Source: Candidatus Obscuribacter sp. (lineage in GTDB: Bacteria; Cyanobacteriota; Vampirovibrionia; Obscuribacterales; Obscuribacteraceae). Taken from it: 64,000 bases of DNA. The stretch covers positions 30,445 to 94,444 of the forward strand of contig JADYXQ010000122.1 of NCBI GenBank assembly GCA_021772135.1, written 5' to 3'. Under the pieces are notes generated by a model. That model was not told the origin of the DNA. It worked only from the letters and a program-made list of their open reading frames with translations, and ran no database searches. The position numbers were made by a program, and so were the translations under genes. Of the stretch, positions 38,218-55,128 are shown one piece after another. Numbering within the stretch: position 1 is the stretch's first letter; the number at the start of each line of letters is the position of its first letter.

Positions 38218-38685
38218 TCAGGCATCGAAATGTTCAAGATATTCACCAGGAAGATCGACCCCGTTAAGGGCCCGCTGCAGCTCTGCATAATCACTAATTT
38301 TTGGCTGTCGGCTGCTTTCGCGTGTGCTGATTAAGAGCAAAACGTCCCCACTAGTAGCGATCGCTAACGCTTCGTGTATGTCTTGTGACCGCGCTTCAGA
38401 AACGGCTGACAAAAGTAGCAGCAAGTCAGTTTTAGTTACTTCCACTGTTTGCGAATGAGCGTCTGTTAGAACTATCAATCGGCCGCCGGCACAAACAAAT
38501 TGCCGAGCCCAGTCTTGCACCTCATTAAGAGCTAATTGCATTGACGCAATATCGCCATAAATGCAGAACGGCTGACTTGGCAGTTCCTTGCGAACCATAA
38601 TCAAACCGAGTTCACAGGCGCTCTTGCTTGCTAACTCTTCTTTTCTTTGTCGCTGCACTGCGCCACTTCCTCCACGCCTACTCAA
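38218..38685 (-). CDS. Hypothetical protein in a likely operon with icd and the CofE-like gene
   Basis: 155-aa ORF, 40 bp from icd; no family recognised with confidence. Confidence 0.5.
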   Translation of the reverse strand: MSRRGGSGAVQRQRKEELASKSACELGLIMVRKELPSQPFCIYGDIASMQLALNEVQDWARQFVCAGGRLIVLTDAHSQTVEVTKTDLLLLLSAVSEARSQDIHEALAIATSGDVLLLISTRESSRQPKISDYAELQRALNGVDLPGEYLEHFDA

Positions 38686-38748
38686 AACCTGTCAGGCATA
38701 TCGCCTAGTCTTCTAGAATTCCATCGCATTATCTCATAAAGTTTTGCA

Positions 38749-38762
38749 TGTGCATATATCTA
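38749..38762 (-). promoter_or_regulatory. Putative ArsR-type operator site 1 (TAGATATATGCACA)
   Basis: 13/14 identical to the site at 47296-47309; lies 64 bp upstream of the 38685 start; flanked by TGCATAT N16 ATATGCA (38751-38780). Confidence 0.5.
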
Positions 38763-38842
38763 AGAAATTGCAAATATGCAGCAATTTTTTTTCAATCAGA
38801 CGGCGCTGAATGTGCTAGGTCTTCGGTCCAGTCATTAGAAAG

Positions 38843-40363
38843 CTAACGGCTGGAAGACAGATAAGTTCCAGGCGCGGCGGCCTGCTTTATCGGCGAGTGA
38901 CGAGAGAGTGCTGATGGATCGAAATCGACGTCGATTTTCTCAAGTATTACCTTATTTGTTTTTCTGTCCCATATGAAGGTGGCGACGTGAGGATAGGCGA
39001 ACATGGAGTTTTCTTTCTTGACAATAGAAACATATTCGTAATGAAGCTGACAAACCTGTCCTTGGTCTCTCAAATTCATAGCACCAATGATCGATCTGGA
39101 ATATGAAGAGAGTTTTTTCTCAAATAGGCCCCAATTACCATTGAAGTATTTGAGGGTAGTGAAAAGACTTGACAGAGTGATGGACTCACAGACGTGCAGA
39201 AAACGAAGTTTTAGAAGAATTGGTCCTTTCTGCCGCAAGTCATAGGTGGACTCATCGAGGACCGTCATCCGCCCGTCGGAAAAAGTAGGTCCTACAGCAA
39301 AGATTCGGACGTAGAAATTTACTAAGTCTGCCGTGAAAACTCTCCAAATGATAATTGGCACCCAGTTCATGAAGCGATCAAATAGTTTCTGCAAGCCACC
39401 CGGAAGCGACTTCTGCGAAAGGTAATTGTAGTACTGGATCGCCTTAAGCACGGGCAAGGCGAAGATGTAAGCATAGATACTGGAGATGATGCAGGAGGCC
39501 ATCCACGGAGTTATGCAGAGCGCTGCCTGGGGTTCAACCGCTCCGGCTCTAACACCGGGCCATATCAGGAAAGGTAAAATAGCCATGAGAAAGGCAAGTC
39601 TTCCAAGTCTAATGAAACAGGAAACATAAAAAAAACTGAGAGTGATCGCTAGGGCGCCCATAGTCTGGAGAGCGGAATTTGGCGACAGAATAAAAAAACC
39701 TGAGATGATCTCGACAATGCAGGCGACGCAATTCATCAGTTTTGGATAAAAGCCAAAAGGATTTTTTTTTGAGAAAAACCGCCAGTGGTGACCCCACATC
39801 GGATTGACTCGTCCGTACTCCATGCCTTCGTCGCGGGTGTAACCGGAAAGGACTTTGTAGCAACCGGCACAGACCATAATAAGTCCAAAGTCGACCCGGT
39901 AAGCTTCCCAAAGCGCAGCACCGATTCGAGCGGAAGGGTCTATCAGGCGAAAGAGCTCAAAAAGTGCTAGGTAGCGTACTGCCCAGTGAGACATGAAGCC
40001 AGGTGCACCACATCCTCTCCGGACACTTTTCCATCTCTGGTCGATAAATAGCCAGCGAAAAAGTCCCCAGAGAAAAATCAAGGCTGCGAGCTTTGGCAGC
40101 GCCGGGGTAAAGGCTGATGCAACGATTGCCAAGGCCCAGGCTCCGAACAGCAGACGAGATCGCGACAGCGCCGGAGCATTTTCTTCGTCGATGTCTGAAA
40201 AGAGCCATCGTCCTATTGGAACGAAAAAAAACAGGTCAAGGGCAAAGAGCAACACTAGAGCTGAGTAAAAATTGCAATAGTTCAAATCCGTATCTCCGAG
40301 CATAGCCCATCTCTTAAAGTTCGCGTCTTTGCTTGACCCGCTAAATGGTTTGGACAATTCCAA
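38843..40363 (-). CDS. Polytopic membrane protein, HTTM/vitamin K-dependent gamma-carboxylase-like
   Basis: Multiple TM segments; GCYKVLSGYTRDEGMEYGRVNPMWGHHWRFFSKKNPFGFYPKLMN resembles HTTM proteins; weakly conserved. Confidence 0.55.
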   Translation of the reverse strand: MELSKPFSGSSKDANFKRWAMLGDTDLNYCNFYSALVLLFALDLFFFVPIGRWLFSDIDEENAPALSRSRLLFGAWALAIVASAFTPALPKLAALIFLWGLFRWLFIDQRWKSVRRGCGAPGFMSHWAVRYLALFELFRLIDPSARIGAALWEAYRVDFGLIMVCAGCYKVLSGYTRDEGMEYGRVNPMWGHHWRFFSKKNPFGFYPKLMNCVACIVEIISGFFILSPNSALQTMGALAITLSFFYVSCFIRLGRLAFLMAILPFLIWPGVRAGAVEPQAALCITPWMASCIISSIYAYIFALPVLKAIQYYNYLSQKSLPGGLQKLFDRFMNWVPIIIWRVFTADLVNFYVRIFAVGPTFSDGRMTVLDESTYDLRQKGPILLKLRFLHVCESITLSSLFTTLKYFNGNWGLFEKKLSSYSRSIIGAMNLRDQGQVCQLHYEYVSIVKKENSMFAYPHVATFIWDRKTNKVILEKIDVDFDPSALSRHSPIKQAAAPGTYLSSSR

Positions 40364-40440
40364 CGTTTGATAGTATCATGATATACAGAAAAGCAAATTT
40401 TCAAATATTCAAATTTTTGCATTAATGAGGTTGCTTGCCA

Positions 40441-40605
40441 ATGTTGACTCACAAGCTCTCCCAGGCTCCAGCAAATATCGTCGCTCCCACCGAAGTATCC
40501 GGTCACAAGAAAAAGAACCTATTGAAGAAGTTTAAAAACCTTCTTGTGGATCTCTTTCTGTCATGCGATGACCCGGACGCGATTTACTCTGCCACGGCCT
40601 ATTAA
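40441..40605 (+). CDS. Unlisted 54-aa ORF, stop codon overlapping the start of the CA-like gene (TAATG)
   Basis: MLTHKLSQAPANIVAPTEVSGHKKKNLLKKFKNLLVDLFLSCDDPDAIYSATAY*; gagg 10 nt upstream of ATG; TAA (40603-40605) shares its last A with ATG at 40605. Confidence 0.5.
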   Translation: MLTHKLSQAPANIVAPTEVSGHKKKNLLKKFKNLLVDLFLSCDDPDAIYSATAY

Positions 40606-41312
40606 TGAAAAAAGAAAACTTGTGCCCTGGCTGTGGCTGTAACGTTTTTGCAAACGCCCCTCGCAAAGTGGTGCGTGAAAGATCCCACGGACGAGAAGTA
40701 TTTATTGTTTGTATGCTCTGTTTTGAAAAATTATTTATCGACGAAGAGCACGAGGGATTTCCGATTATTGATTTCAACGCCGCCGACTTAATTACGGGCG
40801 AGCCACAGATATCCTATTTCGACGACCAGCAACTTTTTGCTGGCTTGCATAGTGGCGAAATTCAAAATCCAGTGGTGATAGCTTGTTCTGAAATGGGGCT
40901 ATGCCTGCCCAGAATTTCCCCCGCGGCTGATGTGCTGATTCTGCAAAACTTCGGAACTCACAAAATTCCTGGTGACGCACAGCTGACTTTCCTGATTGAA
41001 AGAACCAGGACGAATCATGTCGTGATGTATGGCCATTCTCGTTGTCGGTTCCTGAGTTGGTTCATGGAAGACGAAGAACGCCCGGATAAACAGGATTCCA
41101 AACTATATAATTCTGTTGACGAGCTTGCTCGAAGGGCGGTGCTTAACGATATTCGCATACTCGCGCAATCTGACACAATGAAAGAGCTAGCAGCGAAGTA
41201 CGATATTCAGCTACACGCCTGGCTTTACGATGATTCTACTGATCAATTGCACGCTTATGACCCGGCAAGTGCCAGATTCGTCGACACTCGCACCACCAGT
41301 TGCAAGCAATAA
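40605..41312 (+). CDS. Divergent beta-carbonic-anhydrase-like protein with N-terminal zinc-ribbon-like Cys pairs
   Basis: CPGCGC...CMLCF; VVIACSEMGL ... DVLILQNFGTHKIP ... VVMYGHSRCRF ... LHAWLYDDSTDQLHAYD aligns with beta-CA CSDSR / RNAGN / GHxxCG / GW.YD.xTG landmarks. Confidence 0.65.
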   Translation: MKKENLCPGCGCNVFANAPRKVVRERSHGREVFIVCMLCFEKLFIDEEHEGFPIIDFNAADLITGEPQISYFDDQQLFAGLHSGEIQNPVVIACSEMGLCLPRISPAADVLILQNFGTHKIPGDAQLTFLIERTRTNHVVMYGHSRCRFLSWFMEDEERPDKQDSKLYNSVDELARRAVLNDIRILAQSDTMKELAAKYDIQLHAWLYDDSTDQLHAYDPASARFVDTRTTSCKQ

Positions 41313-41322
41313 CGCGTTTTCA

Positions 41323-42234
41323 CTATGGATTACAACGCTGACAGTAAGTTGCCTCGACAAGCGTAAGCCCGTCTCGGCGAGGCAGTTTTTGACTGTAGCT
41401 GCATTTAGAACAAGAATGGATCTCGAAGGCGGGTGCTTCCTGCGATGGATACCCGCAGTCTTCGCAAGGCAAACTGCCCGCCACCCCTGTTATACCCCAG
41501 CCAGGGCACTCGCATTGTGCACAAGCCCGTTGCAGTCGACGCGCCAGCTTAATCGCCAACCTGCGAATCACGCGCTGTCTCAGTGGATTCATGTGCGCCC
41601 GCATATCTGTTTCTATCCGTGCCAATCCGTCATTGGACTGAGACTTGCAAAATTCTATGGCTTCTTCCAGAGTCGCCCGATCGCGAATGCCTTTGATTAA
41701 AGTGAGGGGCTCTTTTCCAGAAAATGCTCCTCCTGCTTTCTCTGGCCGTGACCTCTTTTGATTGTGCGGTAGCACGATTAAACCATGAGAAGGAAAACGG
41801 ACCTGCTCTAGAAACGCTGCTGCTGCTGCTATTGAGGATACGTTAGTGTGATTGTAATTTGTTTCTGTTGATATGGTCTGCTCCGCTATTTCAATTCCAA
41901 GCTCGTCATCAATAAAGACCATGAATTCTTGGTTTCCAGGAATAAAGATTAACTGCGGGTGAGGACCAAAGCTACCTTCATTGGCGAAACCAAATGGCAG
42001 TTTTGTTATCGACATCCCCAGCCGGGCTTTTCGTATCGCCGTCTCAAGTGGGGTACCATCGCGCTCTACTTCTCCGCTAAAAGTCCCCAGGGCATCTGTA
42101 TCAATTCCAGGTGGAGAAATGAGACTCATGCCCAGACCAGTCAGCATAGGCTTTTCGATTGCCCAAAGCTTCTCGTGCTTGGTGGCTAATACGGCTGTCT
42201 TGCCCCGATATCGGTTTACACTTAAAGCCCTCAT
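41323..42234 (-). CDS. DUF6671-like protein with C-terminal multi-zinc-ribbon region
   Basis: ACAQCECPGWGITGVAGSLPCEDCGYPSQEAPAFEIHSCSKCSYSQ...YCQRC; start ATG one nt after the dabA stop (TAAGATG). Confidence 0.65.
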   Translation of the reverse strand: MRALSVNRYRGKTAVLATKHEKLWAIEKPMLTGLGMSLISPPGIDTDALGTFSGEVERDGTPLETAIRKARLGMSITKLPFGFANEGSFGPHPQLIFIPGNQEFMVFIDDELGIEIAEQTISTETNYNHTNVSSIAAAAAFLEQVRFPSHGLIVLPHNQKRSRPEKAGGAFSGKEPLTLIKGIRDRATLEEAIEFCKSQSNDGLARIETDMRAHMNPLRQRVIRRLAIKLARRLQRACAQCECPGWGITGVAGSLPCEDCGYPSQEAPAFEIHSCSKCSYSQKLPRRDGLTLVEATYCQRCNP

Positions 42235-42235
42235 C

Positions 42236-44671
42236 TTAAGCGAAAACTGAAAACTCATTGTTGTCTAATCTCGCCGCTGAAGTTGCTGACTGGCATCGTT
42301 TGATTTGGCGCCACTTGCCGACATCGTCTGCTTCGTAAAATTCCTCCGTTAAAGGATCGAGCGCAATCAGTCTAATCCAGCGGTTTGACACAAGGTTCCT
42401 TACTTCGACATACTTATTCAAAACGTCGTCGATTGAGGTGAGTGGTGCCCTAATTATGGCAAGCAAGCGCATCGGCTCATGCCTAAACCCTTCACTAGCC
42501 ATTACTGATTGCAACGGCAATCCAATTTTTAGGTCGCTTTGCGCTCCCTGCATGACGCCGAAGTCTCCGATGACGTTATGCAAAACCTTACTACCACTGC
42601 CGAAGACTTTATTGTCCATAGTTGACAGGTAGTACTGAATGTTGATCCATTGTGCCACCACAAGCGGTGCTGTCATAATCAGCTCGAGCACTTTGCGGTC
42701 ACTGTCGTTTTCGTACTGATAAGAGTGCAGAAACACGCGTCCCTCAAGGTCTGAATCTTTGCTCAGGCTTCTTGGCGCCGCGAGGAATGCCGCGTTACCA
42801 GCTAATCCCCATTCTGGTGCTATTTGTGCCCAATCGTGAGATCGCTTGAGAGGATTGTTTAATACTGTCAGGCAGCTTTGCGGAAGTGTTGCTGCTCGTC
42901 TGCTACGAACAGCCGTACCTGCAACACTAAGGTCATCTTTTAATTGATTGATAATTATGTGGTGATCTTCAGATAGATTTTCTGCGTCATAAAACGTGAA
43001 AAGATCGGTCGTCGTGTCGTGCTCTGCTGCTATGAAGAGCGTATCGTCGGGAACACGAATGCCTTTGACTGCAAGCTGAGCTCGCACCGTTTGGTCATTA
43101 AGAACATCGGCTGCCAGCCGGGCGCTAAAACCGCCTGCATTCCCGCCGCACGCTCCACAATCTAGAGATGAGGCGTAGGGGTTGTTGACTGAAGAGCTTT
43201 TGTGGCCGCAAAATACCATCACTTTGCCAAAATGTGTAAACCCGATTCCATTCAAGGCGCCTTCGGCAAGCGAAGTCTTTTCGTCGAGTGAAAATTCAGA
43301 TGAGTCAAGCTTCGTCGAGCCTTTCCCCCCCCAAATGTTGTCCAGTTGAAGCGAGACCCGGTGCAAAAGTTCAGGAAAGAATGTCTTTGCCAGAAGCGGT
43401 ATCGACGACCAGAGCCCAAGCAGCTCCACAAGTCCAAAGGCACCGGCAAGACTGCACTTCAGTCTCTTCTTGAGCTGCAACGCAGATACGTCAAGAGCTT
43501 GCCAGCTCATCGTTTTAGCTTTCTCGGCAACGCTAGCCGTCTCGCAGACTTCTTTTTCAGGTTTAAGCAAAACTGGGCAGAGGTCGAAAGACATTGCGCT
43601 TCCTAATTCTTTCAAACGCATTGGCATGGCGAAAAAACCGGCAAATCCGTACGTTGAGTATGGTCCTAACTGCTCCAACTCTCGGCGAATCGGCTCAGAG
43701 CGCACATCAATGCAGAAGACCATCTGACAGCAAGCTATTTTGTCTGATGCTGCCTTTACATTCAACGATGAAAGTAGTTTGTTGCGGTAGTTAAGCTCAT
43801 AAGCATCTTGCCAGACCGGACCGTAGTCGTCGCCCTCGCTAGCACTGCTCGGGACTGCATGTTCTGACTTGAGAAGATTGCGGACAAGACCTAAGTCAGC
43901 ACATTTATACCAGCGCTTAGCGACGACCTGCGACAGCATCTTTTCATAGAACAGCCTTATTGCTAAATAATCGGCAAGAATGCCTGCTTCTCCGTTTTCT
44001 ATCTCTTTCCATTTGAGATAACTGGCAAAGCCCGGCAATTGAGTTAAGTGTCTTCTAAAGTATGGCGCGGCATCCTGTGGTTGGATTTCAAGCTCTGCTA
44101 CTAATGCTGCCAAAGTATCTTGCGACGACTCTGATAATTCATTGATCGACTGCGACCAATCTCTGCAACCGTGCCACCACATTGACAAGTCGTGCCTGGC
44201 CATGTCTTTCCAGAAGTGAAAGAAGCTCCGCTTATCGCTGCTATCTGACCACTGAGCCTGCGTTCGATCAAGAAACGCGCCGCACCACTTGATCATCTGA
44301 CGATTTATTATTGAGACCAAGAGCGAGCCTGTTGTGCGGTCAAGCATCTCAGCGAGGTTCAGCACAGTACGCTCTCGTTCGTTTCCAACAGTGGCCTTAC
44401 GCACCTGGCTCTGGAAAGATTCTTCTAGGTCAGATGGTGTAATCCGTTCGGATTCGTACATCGCTCTGTAATCGGAAAGCGGCAGGAAGCCATTGGCACC
44501 GAATAGATCATTGGATCGCCGCATCGCTTTTTCAAATGGAATCTTTTCCAGGCCCTTTAGAGCGTTGCATGCTATGAAGTTAGTTAGCGGATAGAAAGAG
44601 TTTATACAACTCATCGCTTCACTTACGGCATCACTCAGGTTCTGAACCTGAACTGCTTTGGTGTCCCTCAT
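42236..44671 (-). CDS. dabA: DabA-type inorganic carbon transporter subunit (DUF2309)
   Basis: 811 aa; MVFCIDVRSEPIRRELEQLG (Cys/Asp) and FCGHKSSSVNNPYASSLDCGACGGNAGGFSARLAADVLN (His/Cys), diagnostic of DabA/UPF0753. Confidence 0.93.
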   Translation of the reverse strand: MRDTKAVQVQNLSDAVSEAMSCINSFYPLTNFIACNALKGLEKIPFEKAMRRSNDLFGANGFLPLSDYRAMYESERITPSDLEESFQSQVRKATVGNERERTVLNLAEMLDRTTGSLLVSIINRQMIKWCGAFLDRTQAQWSDSSDKRSFFHFWKDMARHDLSMWWHGCRDWSQSINELSESSQDTLAALVAELEIQPQDAAPYFRRHLTQLPGFASYLKWKEIENGEAGILADYLAIRLFYEKMLSQVVAKRWYKCADLGLVRNLLKSEHAVPSSASEGDDYGPVWQDAYELNYRNKLLSSLNVKAASDKIACCQMVFCIDVRSEPIRRELEQLGPYSTYGFAGFFAMPMRLKELGSAMSFDLCPVLLKPEKEVCETASVAEKAKTMSWQALDVSALQLKKRLKCSLAGAFGLVELLGLWSSIPLLAKTFFPELLHRVSLQLDNIWGGKGSTKLDSSEFSLDEKTSLAEGALNGIGFTHFGKVMVFCGHKSSSVNNPYASSLDCGACGGNAGGFSARLAADVLNDQTVRAQLAVKGIRVPDDTLFIAAEHDTTTDLFTFYDAENLSEDHHIIINQLKDDLSVAGTAVRSRRAATLPQSCLTVLNNPLKRSHDWAQIAPEWGLAGNAAFLAAPRSLSKDSDLEGRVFLHSYQYENDSDRKVLELIMTAPLVVAQWINIQYYLSTMDNKVFGSGSKVLHNVIGDFGVMQGAQSDLKIGLPLQSVMASEGFRHEPMRLLAIIRAPLTSIDDVLNKYVEVRNLVSNRWIRLIALDPLTEEFYEADDVGKWRQIKRCQSATSAARLDNNEFSVFA

Positions 44672-44704
44672 TTATTACTCCTCATATTTTTAGAAAGACA
44701 TCTT

Positions 44705-46258
44705 TCAGTGAGAATTTCGTCTTACTCGCAACCAATTTGAAAAAGCGGAAGTGATCTCCTCGGTATAGAAACCGTTGAGGCTGTGCACATACAGTGCGCT
44801 CGCAAGCCTGCTCTTCCGTGCGATCGATAATGTCATGGCAATCACCGCGAATGATGCCAGACAAAGCGGCAGAAGCCACCCGGTTATGGCATGCTCCGTC
44901 TGCAATAACTTCTCCAGTTGCACACTACCCAATGCACTGGCAGAAGCGAGGCCGAGCACAGAAAACCAAAACAGAGCTAGAGAATTAAGGCTGACACGAT
45001 TGACTGCCGGCACTGCACACAGAATAGCAGTGGCTGCGATGATTGCTGAAATAGCCGTCCATCCTGAATTGGGGCAGGCTATTAACAATGCGCAGCAGAA
45101 ACCTAGTGCTGTTGCCAAAATAAAAACTAGGTTCCTCAATTTTTTTCCCTTTCCTTCTTTCGCCTCAACGGTATAGGCAAATCGCCTTTTTGCAAGCCCT
45201 TCTGCGACAGCGCTACCAGACTGAAGGAACATGTGGCATTTGAACAGTCCATGAGCTAACAAGTGAAAAAGAGCAAAGCCCAACGCACCAGCGGCGCACT
45301 GCAAGCTCATAAATCCCATTTGCCCTACGGTTGAATACACCAGCTTGCGCTTCACGTCGGGCTGAGCGGACATGCTGAGCGTGCCTATCACCACAGAAAT
45401 AGCCGCCAGACCGCCCCACAGCAGCAGCACCACTGGAGATTCATTCAGTACTGGCATCATGCGGTAAGCCACCACCGCAGAGACATTCACTATGCCTGCA
45501 TGCAATAGACCAGACAGCGGTGTCGGTGCATCGAGCGTAGCCAGGAGCCATCTATGAAACGGAAAGAGGGCTGACTTGATACTGAATGATAGAATCAGGA
45601 GCAAACAAATCAAATTGCCTATAGTCAGCGGCAGCTTCAGTCCGAGTAGATGTAATTGACCGTTAAAAGACCCAAGCTGCTGGGGCAGCTCGCTGAAAGT
45701 AACACATTCACTGCAGCTCATAACGATTACTAGCGCTGCAAGCAGGAGTGCATCGCTCAGCAAGTGGTGTCTCAAGACAACAGATGCAGCTTCGCGGCTA
45801 TCTGGCTGCAAGCACATGATCCGCCACAATCCCAGTGACAGAAGGTGCCAACAGATGATGCTCAGGGGTAAGCTGTCGGAGACCGCCAGCACAGCTGCGG
45901 TGGATGATAACAAAGACAGAATACAGAGAAAGCTTTGGCGTGTTTTGTCGCCGCCTAAATAGCGTTCGCTGAAAGCTATTACCACAGCAGAGATTAGCGT
46001 TATTGCCGCTATCACACAACTGGATGCAGGATCTAATTGCAGCTCCAGCCACCGATCACCAAGCACGACCTGCGTTGAAACTGATTGGCAGAAAACAGAA
46101 ACCAGCGCAATAATTGCAAAAACAAAGGCCGTGATATGACCGACGATCAGCAGCTTCGATTGCCACTTCTCACTGAAAGCGATTTGACTGCAAACAACTG
46201 CCAGCACTGGTGTCAATAGTGCGCCGAGCTGGCTTGCAATAAAGAATTCTGTACTCAT
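44705..46258 (-). CDS. dabB: DabB-type NuoL/MrpA-like proton-conducting subunit
   Basis: Polytopic; FPFHRWLLATLDAPTPLSGLLHAGIVNVSAVVAYRM; KRKLVYSTVGQMGFMSLQCAAGALGFALFHLLAHGLFKCHMFLQSGSAV. Confidence 0.9.
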   Translation of the reverse strand: MSTEFFIASQLGALLTPVLAVVCSQIAFSEKWQSKLLIVGHITAFVFAIIALVSVFCQSVSTQVVLGDRWLELQLDPASSCVIAAITLISAVVIAFSERYLGGDKTRQSFLCILSLLSSTAAVLAVSDSLPLSIICWHLLSLGLWRIMCLQPDSREAASVVLRHHLLSDALLLAALVIVMSCSECVTFSELPQQLGSFNGQLHLLGLKLPLTIGNLICLLLILSFSIKSALFPFHRWLLATLDAPTPLSGLLHAGIVNVSAVVAYRMMPVLNESPVVLLLWGGLAAISVVIGTLSMSAQPDVKRKLVYSTVGQMGFMSLQCAAGALGFALFHLLAHGLFKCHMFLQSGSAVAEGLAKRRFAYTVEAKEGKGKKLRNLVFILATALGFCCALLIACPNSGWTAISAIIAATAILCAVPAVNRVSLNSLALFWFSVLGLASASALGSVQLEKLLQTEHAITGWLLPLCLASFAVIAMTLSIARKSRLASALYVHSLNGFYTEEITSAFSNWLRVRRNSH

Positions 46259-46283
46259 TATTCCCTCGCGTGATTTTGTCGAA

Positions 46284-47276
46284 CTAACCGATCAGCCTTA
46301 CGGAAGGCAACCCGGACTGGTGCCCTAAGTCCTGGCCATCAAGTTCGAAGATCTCTTCTAGCTCTGAAGTGGACATGCCTAGAGCTTTAGCCGCTTCGAC
46401 AGCACACCATACTTCCGCCCTGGATACGGGCTCACTGATCGCCGATTGCATCGCTTCGCTCAATTGGTGAAGAGCGCTTTCAGAGAGTCTTTCGGCAATA
46501 CCCTTACCGCTTAAAGAATGTCTTGAGGCAAGCAGGTCTTTGAGAACTTGATCAGCGCGTTTTTGCATTGCTGGATTTTTGTCATAGATGACCGCAGCAA
46601 GTTTTTCATTTGGAAATTCTGGCAGTGTCTCCAGCAGCTCGCAGTAGAGTGCGGCGGTTAGCGCTTCTCGCTCAGGCGAAGGCAATGGGTGACGAATTTG
46701 CGTTAAGACCACAAGATCCGGATCTAGTGCGCTGCCGATGCGCGCGATATCACCTCTAGCCACAGCGCCTGCTTCGAAAATCAAAACATCCGTGCCTTGC
46801 GGCATGGAAAGTACTTCTCTGACACACCCAAACCAGCCAAGATTTTCCATGAAAGCAATATGCGTTTTTGCGTTATTCTGAAGCAGTTGGCTGAGCAGCA
46901 TCATCGTCACACGGCGTCCATTACTGCCTGTCACACCGACCACTCTCGGCTGCACGCGATGTCGCCAATAACGAACTATATCTAGAAGGGCGGTCCTGGT
47001 ATCCGGTACGGAAATCAGGACTGCATCTTTTGCGGCTGCTGCGTAACGGCTGCGACGATTGACAATGCAACCGCGCGCGCCTCTTTCGATAGCCAAACTC
47101 AAGTCGTCATGCGGGTCATGACGCTCAGAAGGAATAGCAATAAACCAATCGCCTGGAGTCAATTCGTCAAGGTTCCAAACGATCTTGCCTGGTTGTTCAT
47201 CGATACATCCCGACTTTAAGCGGCTGTTGGTTGCGTAAAGAATTTCTTCTGCTGTTAGTTCTGCGACCATGGTCAT
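46284..47276 (-). CDS. Truncated Mur-ligase-like protein (MurE/MurF N and central domains) with altered P-loop
   Basis: LTPGDWFIAIPSERHDPHDDLSLAIERGARGCIVNR; VVGVTGSNGRRVTMMLLSQLL; VLIFEAGAVARGDIARIGSALDPDLVVLTQIRHPLPS. Confidence 0.7.
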   Translation of the reverse strand: MTMVAELTAEEILYATNSRLKSGCIDEQPGKIVWNLDELTPGDWFIAIPSERHDPHDDLSLAIERGARGCIVNRRSRYAAAAKDAVLISVPDTRTALLDIVRYWRHRVQPRVVGVTGSNGRRVTMMLLSQLLQNNAKTHIAFMENLGWFGCVREVLSMPQGTDVLIFEAGAVARGDIARIGSALDPDLVVLTQIRHPLPSPEREALTAALYCELLETLPEFPNEKLAAVIYDKNPAMQKRADQVLKDLLASRHSLSGKGIAERLSESALHQLSEAMQSAISEPVSRAEVWCAVEAAKALGMSTSELEEIFELDGQDLGHQSGLPSVRLIG

Positions 47277-47295
47277 AACTTTACCTCAGCGAATG

Positions 47296-47316
47296 TGTGC
47301 AAATATCTAGATATTT
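47296..47316 (-). promoter_or_regulatory. Putative ArsR-type operator site 2 (TAGATATTTGCACA within AAATATCTAGATATTT)
   Basis: 16-bp perfect palindrome 47301-47316 immediately upstream of the Mur-like/dabBA operon start. Confidence 0.55.
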
Positions 47317-47513
47317 CAATCTGGCGATATATGTAAGTATAGCTGACCAACCCCTACTGTCAAACGCTTCTACTGCTTGTGACGAAATGGTAAATCATCC
47401 TGGAACCGTCGTATGCAGCCCTTCTTGCGTCAAGCACGCACGCATGATACTATTGATATGTCTTCATGTTCAAATAAATGAATATATATAAATTTAAACA
47501 AGCGGAGGCTTTT

Positions 47514-47912
47514 ATGCCGCACAGAGCCATAGTGGCACGACAACTCGCCAAGCTCTTTTCAGTGTTATCACACCCTGTACGGGTGCAAATAATCGTCGAG
47601 CTCAGAAGCGGCGAACTTTGCGTCAACTCCTTGCAAGGCATCCTTGAAATAAGGCAATCGGCAGTCTCGCAGCACTTGGCTTTGCTCAAGTCTCATAACT
47701 TGATCAAGGAGCGAAGAGACGGTCGGCATGTCCTATATAGCCTATCCATAGCAGCTATTGCACCATGGCTGGTGGAGGGAATACCGCTTATCCTGCCGGA
47801 TGATTCGGATTCCAAACTACTAAAGTCGGCAGCTCAACTTGCTTTGAATCAATGGTCTGAGCCACTGAATAAACAAGATGATCACAAAACGGCAGTATTT
47901 CTAACAAACTAA
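47514..47912 (+). CDS. ArsR-family winged-helix transcriptional regulator
   Basis: MPHRAIVARQLAKLFSVLSHPVRVQIIVELRSGELCVNSLQGILEIRQSAVSQHLALLKSHNLIKERRDGRHVLYSL; internal ATG at 47514 has SD gcggagg. Confidence 0.9.
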   Translation: MPHRAIVARQLAKLFSVLSHPVRVQIIVELRSGELCVNSLQGILEIRQSAVSQHLALLKSHNLIKERRDGRHVLYSLSIAAIAPWLVEGIPLILPDDSDSKLLKSAAQLALNQWSEPLNKQDDHKTAVFLTN

Positions 47913-47929
47913 AGAACTAGAGGTAACTA

Positions 47930-48325
47930 TCAAGCTTTTGGCGTTCGCTTCTTTGGCCCTGGCTGAGGCTTGGCTTCTGGTCCCCAAACTGTTTTTACGC
48001 TCTGGATTGCAGACATCATTTTCTCTATCTCTGAGGCATCTGGAGAGATAAAGGAGACGCCATCCATGATCCAGCTTGCCAATTTTGGATTACGAAGATG
48101 ATAGAAAACATTTCTACCTTGTCGCATTTCAACGACCAGGTGATGACTTCTAAGAACCGCTAGCTGTTGCGACACAGCCGAGTGGGTTATTCCCAATATA
48201 TCTTTGAGGTTGCCGACAGATAAGTCTTCGCGCTTCAACTCTTCAATTATGCGTATCCGAAGTGGGTGGGAAAGCACGCCAAATAGTTTCGCCATCTCCG
48301 CGCTGACAACCGCCCTATAAGGCAT
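47930..48325 (-). CDS. ArsR-family winged-helix transcriptional regulator (paralogue of the previous)
   Basis: MPYRAVVSAEMAKLFGVLSHPLRIRIIEELKREDLSVGNLKDILGITHSAVSQQLAVLRSHHLVVEMRQGRNVFYHL; SD aagaggtgg. Confidence 0.9.
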   Translation of the reverse strand: MPYRAVVSAEMAKLFGVLSHPLRIRIIEELKREDLSVGNLKDILGITHSAVSQQLAVLRSHHLVVEMRQGRNVFYHLRNPKLASWIMDGVSFISPDASEIEKMMSAIQSVKTVWGPEAKPQPGPKKRTPKA

Positions 48326-48345
48326 ACGACCACCTCTTAATAACT

Positions 48346-48367
48346 TGTGCAAAGTTTAGCATATCTA
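48346..48367 (-). promoter_or_regulatory. Putative ArsR-type operator site 3 (TAGATATGCTAAACTTTGCACA)
   Basis: Same TAGATAT and TTGCACA half sites as sites 1-2, upstream of the second ArsR gene. Confidence 0.45.
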
Positions 48368-49921
48368 CATAAGTCGGCAAGTCACGGCTCTAAAGGCAGC
48401 CACCGACTGCATGTAATCGACATGGACTTCAACGAGCCGCATTTGCGCCTCTGCAGAGGATCGTTCGCGCTGATTGACTAAAAATAAGGTGCTGTCGCCA
48501 GCTCCAAAGCGCAAGCGTTCGCCGTCCTCTACTTGCTTTGCCTTTCTTACTTCAAGTAGCGTCGCCTGCCAGCGTTCATAAGATGTATTGATTCCTGAAA
48601 CAGTATCGTCAACTTCAGCTTGAATGCGCAACTTTTCTGCTCTTTCGTCGAGGTTCAACTTTTGAATCTTTAGCTGTGCTGCTTGCGTTTGTCCTCTGGC
48701 GGTCCGCTGTCTAATTGGCAATGACACAGTCATACCACCACGCACAACTGGTCCGATGCCCTGAGAACCGGTGTCCGCACCTTGAAGCAAGTATGCATCC
48801 ATGGCCGGCAAGATCATATTCTGCGCTAGTCTCAGTTCGACTTTTGCTTGCTCCCGTTCTATTGAAATTCTCTTCAATTCGGGACGTAATTGCAGCGCTG
48901 ATTTTCTTCCCTCCATCCATTCGGCTTCTTTCAATTCACGAGGCTCTGGTGCAAGTGCAGGTACCTCCTGGAAGCTCGGAATGGCTTTCGGGAAGCCGTT
49001 TTCATCCCACAAGAAAACTGACAACATAAGAGAAGACTTTTGAAATTCCCGCTCAGTTTTGACAAGTGCGGCTTGGCGCCTCTGTATTTCTTGCTCAGAT
49101 TCGGCAATGTCCAACGCTGGTAAATCACCTTTCTCCACCCGAACTTTTATTTGCTCAACTCGTGCCTCTGCAATTTTCACAAGATTGCGAGCAACATCGA
49201 TACGGCCTTTTGCTCCGGCCCAGTCATAGTAAACAGCCGCCGCCTTTAAAAGCACCTCCAACCTTGCAGTTCCAAAAACTTGTGACGCTAGAGGTTCGCC
49301 AAGCTTCGCTTGCTGCTCGGCAGCCGTCTTTTCGTTTATCTTCAAGCCGCGAAGTAATGGCACGGACATTCCCGCATAGTACTCACCGCTTTTGCCGGTA
49401 GGCACAAAAGGTGTCTTTGTGTCGTTGGGATTCAACCTCATCCCAACGAACATTTTAATTCCCGACCGGGTTAGCAGGTCAATCTTTGATTCATTATGAA
49501 TGGCATTTTTTGCTACGCCCGGTGTGAACGTATCCTGTACTCGCAAATATTCATTGAGCGAATTCAAGACAGGGTCAAAGGCACCTGACTTTTCTAATCG
49601 TTTGGCGCTTGCTATGCGCCTTTCCGTATCTGCACTTTGTAATTTCGGATAGTTTTTATCAACAATCTGAAGGAAGTAATCGAGGGAGAATGTCTTACCA
49701 CCATTGTTACCGCTTGCTGTTGGATAGATAGCAGAAAGTTGAGCGGGGCTCCTGCCACTACCTTGCAGGCTCTGCGTACTTGTCGGAGATGGAGGTGCAG
49801 ATGGAGATGGAGGCTTTGCCAAATCATCGCCCTGAGCAGAACTTGCACAGGCGACCGAAAGGAGAACAATTGCGCTAAGTATTGAAGGCAACTTTTCTTG
49901 TTTTGTTCTTTGTAAACGCAT
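48365..49921 (-). CDS. TolC-like outer membrane efflux protein
   Basis: Signal peptide; repeated long helical segments; RIDVARNLVKIAEARVEQIKVRVEKGDLPALDIAESEQEIQRRQAALVKTEREFQ. Confidence 0.85.
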   Translation of the reverse strand: MRLQRTKQEKLPSILSAIVLLSVACASSAQGDDLAKPPSPSAPPSPTSTQSLQGSGRSPAQLSAIYPTASGNNGGKTFSLDYFLQIVDKNYPKLQSADTERRIASAKRLEKSGAFDPVLNSLNEYLRVQDTFTPGVAKNAIHNESKIDLLTRSGIKMFVGMRLNPNDTKTPFVPTGKSGEYYAGMSVPLLRGLKINEKTAAEQQAKLGEPLASQVFGTARLEVLLKAAAVYYDWAGAKGRIDVARNLVKIAEARVEQIKVRVEKGDLPALDIAESEQEIQRRQAALVKTEREFQKSSLMLSVFLWDENGFPKAIPSFQEVPALAPEPRELKEAEWMEGRKSALQLRPELKRISIEREQAKVELRLAQNMILPAMDAYLLQGADTGSQGIGPVVRGGMTVSLPIRQRTARGQTQAAQLKIQKLNLDERAEKLRIQAEVDDTVSGINTSYERWQATLLEVRKAKQVEDGERLRFGAGDSTLFLVNQRERSSAEAQMRLVEVHVDYMQSVAAFRAVTCRLM

Positions 49922-49943
49922 TATCGCTGCGTACCTTTCTCTA

Positions 49944-51395
49944 CTACTTTGACTTGCGTTTAACGTCTGTCTTGTTCCCTTCTAAAGTTTTGTGCATACC
50001 GAGCTCTTCGGGCCTTACCGTAGGAGGAAAAGCATTGAATTGTCGCCAGAGCTCAAATCCCAAGCTCACAGTATCCAGCATGATCCAGCCACTCACCTCG
50101 GCCCCGGGACGCAAAAATTTAGCTTTCGGCCAGGGTTCGTCGCGGCCCTGAGCTATTGCTTCTGTGTCAGGTTTGATTATCACACGGTAACGATTGCGTC
50201 CGTCGTCCACCGCATCTATAACAGCTATCCTGCCACCAAAGGTTCCTACGGCTATTGACGGCCAACCCGCAAATTGCAGTGCAGGCCACCCGGCAAATTG
50301 CAATCTAACCGGTCTGCCTACCGCTACTAGCGGTGCGTCATTATCACTTATTGTCAACTCTGCTGCCAGGTCATCAGTGTCAGGCGCTATCACAGCCAGT
50401 ACCATGCCAGCGTCTACGGTCTCGCCGGCGCCCACGCGCATAAGGCGTACGATTCTTCCGGCTGCTGGCGCATATACTTTTCGCTGCTCCATGCGTAAAC
50501 TGACGTTTTGCAAGTCTATCTCCAGCTTGTAGATTTCGCTTGCAGTCGATTCTATTGTCTCCTGGGCGGCCGCCATGGCAGCACTTATATTGCTCATGGC
50601 AGCATCTGTATCAGCCGCCACTTTGTCCTGGTCCAGGACCGCTACTGTTTGATCCCGTTTAGATACCTGCAGTGCAGCATGTGCTCGATCCAGATCGGTC
50701 AGTGCACGAGTGCTATCCAGCTCTGCCAATTCTAGATCCCGCCTTGATCGCAAACCCTTTTCATGCAGCTCTCTCATACGCTTTAAATTGAGATCGGTCG
50801 TAACAGTATTTTGCTGTACCGCTTCCACAGTTTCTTCCGCTGCCCAAATGCGATCTTTTGCTTGCAGTGCGCGCTCGTCTGCTGAAGGTACAGCCGCTCC
50901 CTGAGAGCGCTTCAAGCTCTTTAGCTGATATTCGAGCGCTTTTTGTCTTGACTGTGCGGCTTGCCTGCGCGCTGTTAGTGCTTGCTTTTGCCCCTTCAGG
51001 CGCTTGCTTTGTTCTGGATCTAGAAATTTAGAATCGATATCAGAAAGCTCGGCAATCAACTCGCCTTTCTTCACCACCTGACCATCTCTTACATACCAAC
51101 TTTTTAGTCGTGCTGGGATTTGAGCTTCGATGTTTTGTGGTCGCTCCATCGGGGAAAGGATGATTATTTTTCCACTGCCGGTGACGCTCTGCTGCCAGGG
51201 GACATACACAAGCATCGCACTGAGTGCTACAAGCACAATCGTCAAAAGCACAGCTATCGTGCCATAGCCTCCGGAGGTAGCTACAACCTTCAACGACTGG
51301 TACTCATTGGTACTGAAGCTGTTGGCCTGAAAATCTTTGTCGGCGGTCATTTTCATATTATTCGCTCCCGACTCTCTCTGTCTTTCGTCGCTCAA
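49944..51395 (-). CDS. HlyD-family membrane fusion protein
   Basis: N-terminal TM; IPARLKSWYVRDGQVVKKGELIAELSDIDSKFLD lipoyl motif, coiled coil, VYAPAAGRIVRLMRVGAGETVDAG. Confidence 0.9.
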   Translation of the reverse strand: MSDERQRESGANNMKMTADKDFQANSFSTNEYQSLKVVATSGGYGTIAVLLTIVLVALSAMLVYVPWQQSVTGSGKIIILSPMERPQNIEAQIPARLKSWYVRDGQVVKKGELIAELSDIDSKFLDPEQSKRLKGQKQALTARRQAAQSRQKALEYQLKSLKRSQGAAVPSADERALQAKDRIWAAEETVEAVQQNTVTTDLNLKRMRELHEKGLRSRRDLELAELDSTRALTDLDRAHAALQVSKRDQTVAVLDQDKVAADTDAAMSNISAAMAAAQETIESTASEIYKLEIDLQNVSLRMEQRKVYAPAAGRIVRLMRVGAGETVDAGMVLAVIAPDTDDLAAELTISDNDAPLVAVGRPVRLQFAGWPALQFAGWPSIAVGTFGGRIAVIDAVDDGRNRYRVIIKPDTEAIAQGRDEPWPKAKFLRPGAEVSGWIMLDTVSLGFELWRQFNAFPPTVRPEELGMHKTLEGNKTDVKRKSK

Positions 51396-53157
51396 CCATG
51401 CGGATCTGTGTCGCTAAATCAGGGAAAAGTACTGAAAACTCACTTTCCTTGCGCCATGCCAGATCTTGAGGCGTACCAGACTCCGTAATTGCCCCGGCAC
51501 TTAGCACATAAACTTTGTCAGAGCGCATCACGACCTCGGCATCATGCGATATGTCGAGTACAGTCCAACCGATTTCTGGTGAAAACAATTGATGGATTAT
51601 CTTCAGTTTGGTTTTTTCATCTATACCAGTGAATGCTTCGTCCAGGATAAGAAGGCTCGGTCTTTCTGCTATTGCCCTGGCGATTAAAAGACGCTGAACT
51701 TGACCGCGAGACAGATTGCGTCCACCACTCACCAACATCGTGTTGATGCCGTCCGGGAGATCGATCAGATCAGTGGAAAACTGCGCTGTATCAAGCGCCC
51801 AACGAATATCCTGATGGGAAACTGAGGGTCTACCCAAACCAACGTTGTCTTCTATTGTTCCTTCCAAAATTTCATTAACATCCCCCACAAAACCTACTTG
51901 CTTTCTAAGGCTGTGCAAGTCGAGGTCTCTTACGTCATGGCCGCCAACCTCAACCGTGCCATGGCTAGCCTCCTGCAAACCGCAGATGAGAGATGCCAGA
52001 GTTGTTTTTCCGGCACCACTTGCTCCGACCAGACTTGCTTTTTGCCCGCTCTCAATCAGTAAATCAAGCCCAGAGAGAATTTCGCTTCTGGTATAGGAGA
52101 AACGCAGCTTCATACACTTTATGCTGAGACCTCTTTCACTGTATGAGAGCTCGGTGCCACCCTGCCGCTCGATTGGCAGGTCGCTGACGTGACCGATTTT
52201 GTCTAATCCTGTGAGCAGGTCGTAAAAGGTATCGCAATTGCGGATTAGCTTCTCCAGTGCGCTTAGTACGTTCAACATAACCAGTTCTGCCGCCACAAGT
52301 TGTCCTAATGTCAATTCCCGGTTTATGACAAGCCATCCGCCAATTGCAAGAATGCCTGCACTGGCTATGGCTTGGAAGAAATAGGTTCCAAATGCCTGCC
52401 TGAAGAGCACAGCGAAGTGGGCTCGTCTTGCTTGCAGATAATTGAGCACCAGGCCGTCGCTACGTCTAACGAGATACTGAATGAAGCCGTTTGTTTTCAG
52501 ACTGGTCTGGCACCGCCCCATATCCTCAAGCCATTCCGCTACCCGGTACTTCAGCACTGACTCGTGAATACTGGTTTTTAGCCCGCCTATGCCGAGCACG
52601 CTCACGGCAAAAAATATGAATAGGAGAATGAATACGTCGAAAGCCAGTAGAAACGGACTGTAGAAGGCCATCAATACTAGACCGATAAGAACTTGCAGAA
52701 GTGCGGAAGGTCCTTCCAGCAGCAACTTTCCCCAGGACTTCTGCACAGTGATTACATCGAAGAATCTATTGATCAACTCTGGCATGTATTCATTGTTAAG
52801 TGCCGACGCTTTGATCGACGGTATACGCTCGCTCAAGAGCAAGGTTATGCGCGCGAAAATCCTCTGCTGCAAATTCTCAACCAGGCATAATTTCATCATT
52901 CTCAATACGCTGGCGAATAAAAGTCCGGCTAGAACAAGAAGGGAAAGGACTATCAGGGGCTGGAGGAATATGCCGGCAGCGATAGTGTTGACTAAAGCTT
53001 GAGATGCTAGAGGCACTGCCAATGACACCAAGCCAGTAATTAATGTGTAGACGATCAGGACGATTAAGTCTTGCTTGTCAGCCAGAAGCAAGAGCCAAAG
53101 CCGCCGCATTGGAGTCAAATGGTCCCGGTGAATCTGATCATGAATACCGGATGTCAT
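51358..53157 (-). CDS. ABC transporter, fused TMD-NBD, type I secretion/peptide exporter-like (no C39 peptidase)
   Basis: Walker A LVGASGAGKTTL, signature LSRGQVQRLLIARAIA, Walker B LLILDEAFTGID; overlaps hlyD-like ORF. Confidence 0.92.
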   Translation of the reverse strand: MTSGIHDQIHRDHLTPMRRLWLLLLADKQDLIVLIVYTLITGLVSLAVPLASQALVNTIAAGIFLQPLIVLSLLVLAGLLFASVLRMMKLCLVENLQQRIFARITLLLSERIPSIKASALNNEYMPELINRFFDVITVQKSWGKLLLEGPSALLQVLIGLVLMAFYSPFLLAFDVFILLFIFFAVSVLGIGGLKTSIHESVLKYRVAEWLEDMGRCQTSLKTNGFIQYLVRRSDGLVLNYLQARRAHFAVLFRQAFGTYFFQAIASAGILAIGGWLVINRELTLGQLVAAELVMLNVLSALEKLIRNCDTFYDLLTGLDKIGHVSDLPIERQGGTELSYSERGLSIKCMKLRFSYTRSEILSGLDLLIESGQKASLVGASGAGKTTLASLICGLQEASHGTVEVGGHDVRDLDLHSLRKQVGFVGDVNEILEGTIEDNVGLGRPSVSHQDIRWALDTAQFSTDLIDLPDGINTMLVSGGRNLSRGQVQRLLIARAIAERPSLLILDEAFTGIDEKTKLKIIHQLFSPEIGWTVLDISHDAEVVMRSDKVYVLSAGAITESGTPQDLAWRKESEFSVLFPDLATQIRMVERRKTERVGSE

Positions 53158-53218
53158 AGCTAATTCCTAGAGTATTCCTGGCAAACAATGTCTACACTAT
53201 CCAAAGTATCATTACTAG

Positions 53219-53251
53219 TTCAAATGTGCAAGAGTTTGAATATATAGATAT
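53219..53251 (-). promoter_or_regulatory. Putative ArsR-type operator site 4 (TTCAAA N10 TTTGAA plus TTGCACA)
   Basis: ttcaaatgtgcaagagtttgaatatatagatat upstream of the ABC transporter operon. Confidence 0.5.
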
Positions 53252-53388: not shown

Positions 53389-55128
53389 ATGAAAACAATT
53401 GCACCGTTCCAAAATGCTCCTATCGGGATGGTCTGTTTTGACCGCGGGCTGACGCTTCTCGAGTGTAATGAGTCTGCTGCAAACCTTTTTGGAGCAAGAT
53501 GCGTTGCAGGTGAAAGTCTTTGCTCCATAGGTGATCTCAGTGAAATTTGCAGCGAATTATCTACATGGTTGCTTACCACGGAGAGAACTCTTTCACTTGA
53601 GAGCGGCAAAAATGGGCGACGGCTGGAATTTCAATGCTGGTTGAGTGATACGGATCTGGTTTATGCCCTCGTCAAAGACGCGACCGAAAAAGCTCGCGAC
53701 ACGGCCAGGATGAACTTGCTGGCTACCGCTGTAGAACAAGCCTGGGAGTCGGTCTGCATAACCGACGCAGAGCTGGATTCACCCGGGCCTCATTTCGTAT
53801 ATTGTAATCGTGGTTATGAGGCATTAATGGGCTACAGAGAGGCTGAGGTTCTCGGCCTCTCTCCAAGAATCCATCAGGGCCCGTTAACAGACAAAGCAGT
53901 CTTAGCGCGATTGAAGCAAAATTTGCGCAATGGCACCAATTTTCATGGCGAAGCCATTAACTATAAGAAGGATGGCTCTCCTTTTTGGTTGGAGTGGAAA
54001 ATATCTCCAATTAAAGATGAAGCCGGGAAAATCATAAATTTTATCGCTTTTCAGCGCGATATAACTCCTTTAAAAGAAGCACAGCAAAGAGCCAGAGACC
54101 TTTCTTCAATCATGGCCCACGAACTCAAAGCTCCTCTTACCTCAATAAATGGCGCTTTGGGCCTGTTACAGATCAGTTATGAGCCGGAATCTGCCGATGA
54201 GTTGCTGACCATTGGTATGGACAGCATCCAGCGGTTGCTTCGATTGATAAATGATATTTTGGAAGTCGAACAACTTGAAGATCGGAAATTCGAATTAAAG
54301 CTCGATGTTTTCTCTGTGCGACGTCTGTTTACTTCTGTTCAACAGACTCTGCAAAATTATATTCCTGAGAATAATTTGCACATTGTTATCGATTTGCCAA
54401 AAGACTTAAATCTCTATGCCGATATCGATCGAATTACACAAGTTCTAATTAATCTCACGTCAAATGCTCTCAAGTATTCACCCAAAGGTGGAACAGTCAC
54501 TCTGCGAGGCCTGGTCGCAGAAGACAATTCAGTACGCCTTTCTGTACATGATCAGGGTCCTGGAATACGCGAAGAAAATCTAACGAAGCTCTTTTTCAGG
54601 TTTCAACAATTGGCTGCTGAAGATGGCGTACCGAGAGAAGGAAGTGGAGTAGGTCTTGCTATAGCTAAGTCTTTGGTAGAATCACATGGTGGCAAAATTG
54701 GCGCTGAAAGCGTGCTGGGTGAAGGCAGTACTTTTTGGTTCCAGCTGAATGGGAATGGACATTTTCCGCACGAACAAGAAGCATCGATGTCTCCCAGCTC
54801 CGTGCTTCTAGTTGATGACAACGAACTTTTTGCTTCATTCATAAAACGACGTATGACCAGCCTCGGCTATCTCGTCAATCGTGTTACATCACTGAATAAC
54901 ATTGGCGCAGCACTTAAAACTTTTACACCTCAGATGTGCATAGTTGGCAGCGAGACTGTAGGAGCGGTAGATGCCGTAGCGTCAATTGGAGATGCAAAGC
55001 CTCAGATTCCGATCGTAACTGTTTCAGGCTTCGGCACGGACGGTGAGGGATTGATCAGTTCTATCAGCCCATCAAAGCTATCTGCTGAGCAGTTCATCGA
55101 GCAATTGCAGAGAAAGCTTTTACGATGA
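53389..55128 (+). CDS. Hybrid sensor histidine kinase: PAS - LOV-like PAS - HisKA/HATPase - degenerate receiver
   Basis: MAHELKAPLTSINGALGLL; LTSNALKYSPKG; EGSGVGLAIAKSLVESHGG; C-terminal SSVLLVDDNELFASFIKRRM. Confidence 0.9.
   Translation: MKTIAPFQNAPIGMVCFDRGLTLLECNESAANLFGARCVAGESLCSIGDLSEICSELSTWLLTTERTLSLESGKNGRRLEFQCWLSDTDLVYALVKDATEKARDTARMNLLATAVEQAWESVCITDAELDSPGPHFVYCNRGYEALMGYREAEVLGLSPRIHQGPLTDKAVLARLKQNLRNGTNFHGEAINYKKDGSPFWLEWKISPIKDEAGKIINFIAFQRDITPLKEAQQRARDLSSIMAHELKAPLTSINGALGLLQISYEPESADELLTIGMDSIQRLLRLINDILEVEQLEDRKFELKLDVFSVRRLFTSVQQTLQNYIPENNLHIVIDLPKDLNLYADIDRITQVLINLTSNALKYSPKGGTVTLRGLVAEDNSVRLSVHDQGPGIREENLTKLFFRFQQLAAEDGVPREGSGVGLAIAKSLVESHGGKIGAESVLGEGSTFWFQLNGNGHFPHEQEASMSPSSVLLVDDNELFASFIKRRMTSLGYLVNRVTSLNNIGAALKTFTPQMCIVGSETVGAVDAVASIGDAKPQIPIVTVSGFGTDGEGLISSISPSKLSAEQFIEQLQRKLLR

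What the first reader, a model, noticed from the sequence alone, without database searches (positions are those of the whole stretch)
38749..53251. Shared putative operator across the carbon/ArsR/secretion region: a candidate regulon
Four minus-strand promoters carry TAGATAT and (T/A)TGCACA half sites: TAGATATATGCACA (38749-38762), TAGATATTTGCACA (47296-47309), TAGATATGCTAAACTTTGCACA (48346-48367) and ATATCTATATATTCAAACTCTTGCACATTTGAA (53219-53251, plus-strand coordinates). The first two differ at one of 14 positions. They precede, respectively, the hypothetical-icd-cofE unit, the Mur-like-dabB-dabA operon, the second ArsR gene and the ABC/HlyD/TolC operon. Two related forms occur as well: ATATTCAAATTTTTGCATTA (about 40405-40425) before the micro-ORF/CA-like pair, and TTCAAATAAATGAATATAT (47469-47487) at the first ArsR gene. 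ArsR-family proteins bind AT-rich inverted repeats, and two ArsR paralogues sit in the middle. Linking the regulators to the sites is inference.
Basis: partly seen in the sequence, partly recalled or inferred. Interest (0 to 1): 0.78.

Follow-up and report, generated by a model that had tools for sequence, protein, structure and literature searches.

The report
ArsR-repressor operator for inorganic-carbon genes
A short DNA site, conserved in dozens of relatives, marks the promoters of CO2/bicarbonate-uptake genes, an exporter and two ArsR-type repressor genes, which points to a previously undescribed local switch for inorganic-carbon supply in non-photosynthetic relatives of cyanobacteria.

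Summary
Motif finding on relatives only, separately per promoter class, gives one element: ATAT[TG]C-N5-YTTGCA, i.e. AT[TG]C-N8-G[CA]A, the ATTC-N8-GAAT geometry of the ArsR-family regulator SqrR. Scanned over the window, a matrix built without window data ranks first to fifth the promoters of the CA-like gene, ArsR2, the ABC/HlyD/TolC operon, Mur-dabB-dabA and ArsR1. A model built without this genome puts three of these as its top three hits genome-wide. The icd site scores at background, although icd is joined to this gene set in another family. In relatives the site follows the same transcription units, keeps fixed spacing to -35/-10 boxes, and also precedes beta-carbonic anhydrase/bestrophin operons, one in this genome headed by a third ArsR paralogue. 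Best reading: a local ArsR-type repressor regulon for inorganic-carbon supply. The ArsR proteins lack SmtB alpha5 and SqrR-type cysteine ligands, so the signal is unknown; CO2/bicarbonate status is the leading guess. Nothing here is biochemical proof.

The parts
40400..40423 (+). Operator at the micro-ORF/CA-like promoter; core 40405-40421 ATATTCAAATTTTTGCA
   Evidence: Rank 1 in window with relatives-only matrix; E 0.0033 genome-wide, third of all hits
40441..40605 (+). Micro-ORF (54 codons) overlapping the CA-like start by one base (TAATG)
   Evidence: Read from sequence
40605..41312 (+). Beta-carbonic-anhydrase-like protein; GHSRC present, CSEMG lacks the Asp/Arg of CxDxR
   Evidence: PF00484 E 1.2e-5; sequence; its seven homologues in the family lie next to DabB/DabA
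41323..42258 (-). DUF6671 protein, end of dab operon
   Evidence: PF20376 E 5e-52
42236..44671 (-). DabA
   Evidence: PF10070 E 2e-237
44705..46258 (-). DabB (Mrp/Nuo-like)
   Evidence: PF00361
46284..47276 (-). Truncated MurF-like protein, first gene of dab operon
   Evidence: PF08245; TIGR01143 below cut-off
47298..47319 (-). Operator at the dab promoter; inner perfect palindrome AAATATCTAGATATTT; core 47298-47314
   Evidence: Rank 4 in window; same place relative to -35/-10 as in 12 relatives
47336..47363 (-). dab promoter TTGACA (47363-47358), N16, TATACT (47341-47336)
   Evidence: Exact match and spacing in 11 of 13 genomes including this one
47465..47490 (+). Operator at ArsR1 promoter; TTC-N8-GAA at 47469-47482
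   Evidence: Rank 5 in window; ArsR1 class not used for the matrix
47514..47912 (+). ArsR1, divergent from the dab operon
   Evidence: HTH_5 E 6.5e-10; NF033788 above cut-off
47930..48325 (-). ArsR2, last gene of the ABC-HlyD-TolC-ArsR2 gene run, convergent with ArsR1
   Evidence: HTH_20/HTH_5; NF033788 above cut-off
48343..48369 (-). Operator before ArsR2; core 48348-48364 ATATGCTAAACTTTGCA
   Evidence: Rank 2 in window; second of all hits genome-wide
48365..53157 (-). TolC (48365-49921), HlyD (49944-51395), ABC exporter (51358-53157)
   Evidence: Pfam; orthologues in the same order across the family, mostly 61-85% identical
53222..53249 (-). Operator at the ABC promoter; core 53227-53243, overlapping the -35 TTGCAC
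   Evidence: Rank 3 in window; best hit genome-wide, E 8.8e-4
53203..53211 (-). Extended -10 TGATACTTT of the ABC promoter, 17 bp after TTGCAC
   Evidence: TGNTANNNT at the identical offset (32) in 16 of 17 genomes
38741..38762 (-). Doubtful operator at the hyp-icd-cofE unit (TGCAAT-N10-TATGCA)
   Evidence: Matrix score 6.8, background; partial conservation in one relative, L117

Best explanation
The sites are operators of ArsR/SmtB-type winged-helix repressors (ArsR2, helped or antagonised by ArsR1). Bound dimers cover the start region of the dab promoter, the -35 box of the ABC-exporter promoter and the promoters of the two ArsR genes and the CA-like gene. They thereby repress, as one local regulon, the DAB bicarbonate/CO2 pump, its carbonic-anhydrase-like partner, DUF6671, an ABC/HlyD/TolC exporter and themselves. 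A paralogue, ArsR3, uses the near-identical ATTC-N8-GAAT site for an ArsR3-betaCA-bestrophin operon elsewhere in this genome. Shown: the conserved element, its placement on promoters, its genome-wide rarity and the gene content. Inferred: that ArsR proteins bind it, that the effect is repression, and that release follows inorganic-carbon shortage or a related metabolic signal.
For: Separate motif discovery on ABC, Mur and ArsR2 promoters of relatives gave the same element (log-likelihood ratios 228/183/366 against 73-89 for shuffles). Relatives-only matrix: window ranks 1-5. Model without this genome: its top three hits in 5.9 Mb are in the window. Exact consensus in 50 genomes: 62 matches against 4 for the reversed control; in G036, 4 of 5 matches lie in this cluster. 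In 630 kb of relatives 72 of 77 hits of 14 or more lie near starts of ABC, ArsR, Mur, DabB, CA or DUF6671 genes (partly circular for training classes). The site moves with the unit: before DabB where Mur is absent (L058, L062), before CA where CA is first (L063). Fixed promoter-operator spacing. Out of sample: betaCA promoters in G036, G029, G030 and all seven ArsR3-betaCA units carry it; 21 other betaCA paralogues do not. SqrR's deduced site is ATTC-N8-GAAT (PMC9774250). Genomes with ArsR1/2/3-type genes have a good site in 26 of 32 cases, those without in 1 of 18. Another family has CA-icd-DUF6671-ABC-HlyD-TolC behind one ArsR gene (L252).
Against: No binding or expression data. The dab site in the window is a divergent copy (14.6 bits) and ArsR1's is weak (12.5). 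No SmtB alpha5 ligands and no Cys pair, so no known ArsR sensing chemistry applies. Why an exporter belongs to a carbon regulon is unexplained. The occurrence test is partly circular because training sites come from ArsR-bearing genomes. A few strong hits in relatives lie by unrelated genes (L183, L189, L191). Another regulator could own the site.
Confidence: 0.78

Rival explanations
1. Chance: AT-rich promoter sequence that happens to look alike.
Against: Relatives-only matrix ranks, genome-wide top hits, fixed promoter spacing and absence from 21 unrelated betaCA promoters.
Confidence: 0.02
2. The element is a real shared operator, but a different transcription factor (for example a response regulator linked to the PAS histidine kinase at 53389) binds it; the ArsR genes are only targets.
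For: No binding data; a histidine-kinase gene is divergent from the ABC operon.
Against: Site precedes the ArsR genes themselves in three ArsR clades, tracks ArsR presence, and matches the SqrR-type geometry. Homologues of that kinase were not found beside the sites in the relatives' loci.
Confidence: 0.1
3. A metal or sulfur-species (thiol) regulon of the classical ArsR/SmtB or SqrR/BigR type; the carbon genes are controlled because carbonic anhydrases and DabA need zinc.
For: Nearest solved relatives are SmtB, SrnR, SqrR and BigR; operator geometry is SqrR-like; exporters are frequent ArsR targets.
Against: SmtB alpha5 ligands are replaced (D104/H106/H117/E120 against N79/K81/I92/D95 in ArsR2, the last two by extending the alignment). 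ArsR2 has no Cys; ArsR1 only the single ELCV Cys. Target genes are carbon-supply genes in several families.
Confidence: 0.1
4. The motif is a lineage-specific core-promoter element rather than an operator.
For: At ABC it contains a -35-like TTGCAC.
Against: It overlaps the -35 at ABC but lies downstream of the -10 at dab, with constant spacing inside each class and different spacing between classes; it is rare genome-wide.
Confidence: 0.03

Closest known systems
SqrR/BigR/YgaV (ArsR-family sulfide-responsive repressors)
   Same: ArsR winged helix; AT-rich dyad ATTC-N8-GAAT over promoters; site at the regulator's own promoter (PMC9774250)
   Different: No Cys pair; half-site drifted to GCA in the ArsR1/2 regulon; targets are inorganic-carbon genes and an exporter
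SmtB/ArsR metalloregulators
   Same: NF033788 family above cut-off; local, self-linked regulon
   Different: Alpha5 metal ligands absent; targets are not metal-handling genes
LysR-type inorganic-carbon regulators (CcmR/NdhR, CmpR, CbbR; own knowledge)
   Same: Physiological target: CO2/bicarbonate acquisition genes
   Different: Different protein family and operator type
DAB / MpsAB inorganic-carbon pumps
   Same: DabA and DabB families; in S. aureus MpsAB is needed for growth at atmospheric CO2 (PMC6689103)
   Different: No paper in the held library holds DabA, inorganic carbon and ArsR together

Membership tests
ArsR/SmtB transcription factors | ArsR-type winged HTH (PF01022, NF033788) | tested here: met
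ArsR/SmtB transcription factors | Operator at own promoter (autoregulation) | tested here: met
   Sites before ArsR1, ArsR2 and ArsR3 in many genomes; the site is shown, binding is not
ArsR/SmtB transcription factors | Binding and release by inducer | not testable with these tools
   needs EMSA or reporter
SmtB-type metal sensors | Alpha5 ligands Asp104, His106, His117, Glu120 | tested here: not met
   Alignment of ArsR2 to SmtB covers the first pair; the second pair read by extending it
SqrR/BigR thiol sensors | Conserved Cys pair | tested here: not met
   No Cys in ArsR2, one in ArsR1; below NF040642 cut-off (54.7/55.1 against 155)
SqrR/BigR thiol sensors | Operator ATTC-N8-GAAT | tested here: met
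   ArsR3-type sites match closely; ArsR1/2-type sites keep the spacing with a GCA half (PMC9774250)
LysR-type carbon regulators | LysR HTH and effector domain | tested here: not met
   Both regulators are 131-132 aa ArsR proteins
DAB inorganic-carbon pump | DabA (PF10070) and DabB (PF00361) adjacent | tested here: met

The most novel reading that the evidence does not exclude
An ArsR subfamily that senses CO2/bicarbonate (or a tightly coupled metabolite) without metal or thiol ligands, and in non-photosynthetic Cyanobacteriota does the job that LysR regulators do in cyanobacteria.
Probability: 0.3. Interest if true: 0.85.

Novelty: new variant of a known kind. Interest (0 to 1): 0.7.

Why it matters
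It proposes a regulator and operator for a DAB inorganic-carbon pump, assigns a carbon-supply role to an ArsR subfamily lacking the known sensing sites, and ties an exporter, DUF6671 and a MurF-like protein to bicarbonate supply. All of it is testable with short DNA probes and three small proteins.

Tried and rejected
A 22-bp TKSAAA-N10-TTTSMA dyad, tried first: it finds the CA, dab and ABC sites, 3 of 25 in the genome, but misses ArsR1 and ArsR2 and was superseded by the 17-bp core. The icd site as an established operator (score 6.8); only 8 close icd orthologues exist in the family outside this genome, of which one (L117) keeps a similar block. The enrichment quantiles against random loci windows, because those windows included true sites. 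The '0 of 17' counter, which used wrong offsets; the printed lists show 16 of 17 at offset 32. No structure prediction was run: the fold is not in doubt and would not reveal the ligand.

Full report
WHAT IS THERE. The quoted sequences are present at the quoted coordinates. The minus-strand unit Mur-like/DabB/DabA/DUF6671 (47276-41323) faces away from ArsR1 (47514-47912, plus). ArsR1 converges on ArsR2 (48325-47930, minus), which is the last gene of an ABC-HlyD-TolC-ArsR2 run starting at 53157. A micro-ORF and a CA-like gene start at 40441 on the plus strand. Loci found with ArsR1 are titled Melainabacteria and Obscuribacter; the family has 50 genomes in the search collection.

The near-identity of two 14-mers is one of 638 such same-strand pairs in the window, and 3-mismatch matches are at shuffle level. 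The site between TolC and ArsR2 sits in a 39-bp gap and its TAG is the TolC stop codon. The claim had to be tested with relatives.

COMPARATIVE TEST. The neighbourhood ABC-HlyD-TolC-ArsR2 / ArsR1 / Mur-DabB-DabA-DUF6671 recurs, wholly or in pieces, in many genomes. Aligned upstream regions show conserved blocks. Expectation-maximisation run separately on ABC, Mur and ArsR2 promoters of relatives, with no window sequence, returned the same core ATAT[TG]C-N5-YTTGCA; the smaller ArsR1 set gave a less clear motif. A 17-bp matrix from those three classes, scanned over all window positions on both strands, ranks as its five best the promoters of CA (23.7), ArsR2 (22.2), ABC (21.5), dab (14.6) and ArsR1 (12.5). 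The null expects 0.02 hits of 20 or more, 0.7 of 14 or more and 2.2 of 12 or more, so the dab and ArsR1 sites rest on position and conservation as well as score. The ArsR1 and CA classes were not in the training set. A 29-position model built from relatives gives the ABC, ArsR2 and CA sites as its three best hits in the whole 5.9-Mb genome (E 8.8e-4, 0.0023, 0.0033). The exact consensus gave 62 matches against 4 for the reversed control in 50 genomes.

SITE AND PROMOTER ANATOMY. Read as AT[TG]C-N8-G[CA]A the core has the spacing of the deduced SqrR site ATTC-N8-GAAT (PMC9774250). At the ABC promoter the site contains the -35 TTGCAN, and an extended -10 TGNTANNNT follows at exactly the same offset in 16 of 17 genomes. 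At the dab promoter a TTGACA-N16-TATACT promoter precedes the site at the same offset in 11 of 13 genomes exactly, and in the other two with a one-base -35 change. Different placement in different promoters, constant within each, is what an operator shows and a core-promoter element does not. By position the expected effect is repression (inference).

THE SITE FOLLOWS CARBON GENES. Where Mur is absent the site precedes DabB (L058, L059, L062); where CA is first it precedes CA (L063). The family-wide model scan, whose training held no canonical carbonic-anhydrase promoter, hit the promoters of beta-carbonic anhydrases in G036 (with bestrophin), G029 and G030. Orthologous betaCA genes elsewhere are headed by a third ArsR paralogue: all seven such ArsR3-betaCA units carry the site before ArsR3, including one in the window's own genome (G000:C325, L085), whereas 21 other betaCA paralogues have none. 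The seven homologues of the window's CA-like gene in the family lie beside dab genes. A dab operon in G028, a genome without ArsR1/2, has no site (L255).

OUTSIDE THE FAMILY. Of 386 genomes drawn from the phylum (this genome included), seven others have close ArsR3 homologues. In G075 (another family), ArsR3-betaCA-SulP is preceded by a perfect site (L247). In the same genome ArsR-CA-icd-DUF6671-ABC-HlyD-TolC form one gene run behind ATTCTCCATATATATAGATAAATATATATATGGAGAAT (L252). Most genes that the window joins only by a shared operator are thus contiguous there, icd included. This keeps the icd unit a plausible member on genomic context although its site in the window is at background and only one relative (L117) keeps a similar block. 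Not every ArsR3 homologue outside the family is carbon-linked: those of family f10 (L244-L246, L248-L249) have no carbon gene nearby and no site.

REGULATORS. ArsR1, ArsR2 and ArsR3 fall in distinct parts of the tree, with ArsR1 and ArsR3 supported clades. ArsR2-type proteins occur with the sites in genomes lacking ArsR1 (same-genus G005-G008), so ArsR2 is probably the main regulator and ArsR1 an addition (inference). SmtB alpha5 ligands are not conserved, ArsR2 has no cysteine and ArsR1 a single one, so classical metal or persulfide sensing is unlikely but not excluded. Genomes carrying these ArsR genes have a good site in 26 of 32 cases, those without in 1 of 18; this is partly circular because training sites came from ArsR-bearing genomes.

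CONCLUSION. The shared operator is shown by sequence evidence. ArsR binding, repression, and a carbon-status signal are inferred, in falling order of confidence (about 0.85, 0.8, 0.5). No paper in the held library holds DabA, inorganic carbon and ArsR together, and the two that hold ArsR family, carbonic anhydrase, bicarbonate and operator are, by title and abstract, about zinc quota and arsenic resistance; subscription journals are largely missing.

Noticed in passing
L085:9979-11717 (G000:C325): ArsR3-betaCA-bestrophin operon in the window's own genome with an operator of 21.6 bits before ArsR3; the betaCA match is split in two overlapping pieces, suggesting a frameshift or assembly error.
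   Followed up: partly
L252:7176-14440 (G075): One gene run ArsR-CA-icd-DUF6671-ABC-HlyD-TolC behind a long inverted repeat ATTCTCCATATATAT...ATATATATGGAGAAT, with a second ArsR gene divergent.
   Followed up: partly
window 46284-47276: MurF-like protein truncated after the central domain, with GSNGRRVT in place of the usual GKT/S P-loop; conserved as first gene of dab operons. Longer versions with a Mur ligase C-domain sit downstream of sites in L186 and L198.
   Followed up: no
window 40605-41312: CA-like protein keeps GHSRC but has CSEMG instead of CxDxR and carries an N-terminal CPGCGC/CMLC cluster; possibly not a classical active anhydrase.
   Followed up: no
L075, L077-L082: A further ArsR clade related to ArsR2 without the operator upstream; targets unknown.
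   Followed up: no
L183:4554, L189:4348, L191:4735: Isolated strong matrix hits (21-24 bits) in relatives near a response-regulator gene or inside coding regions; chance or extra targets.
   Followed up: no
window 38218-38685: Hypothetical protein heading the icd-cofE unit; homologues precede icd in L117 (41%) and L118 (33%), so the pair is conserved.
   Followed up: partly
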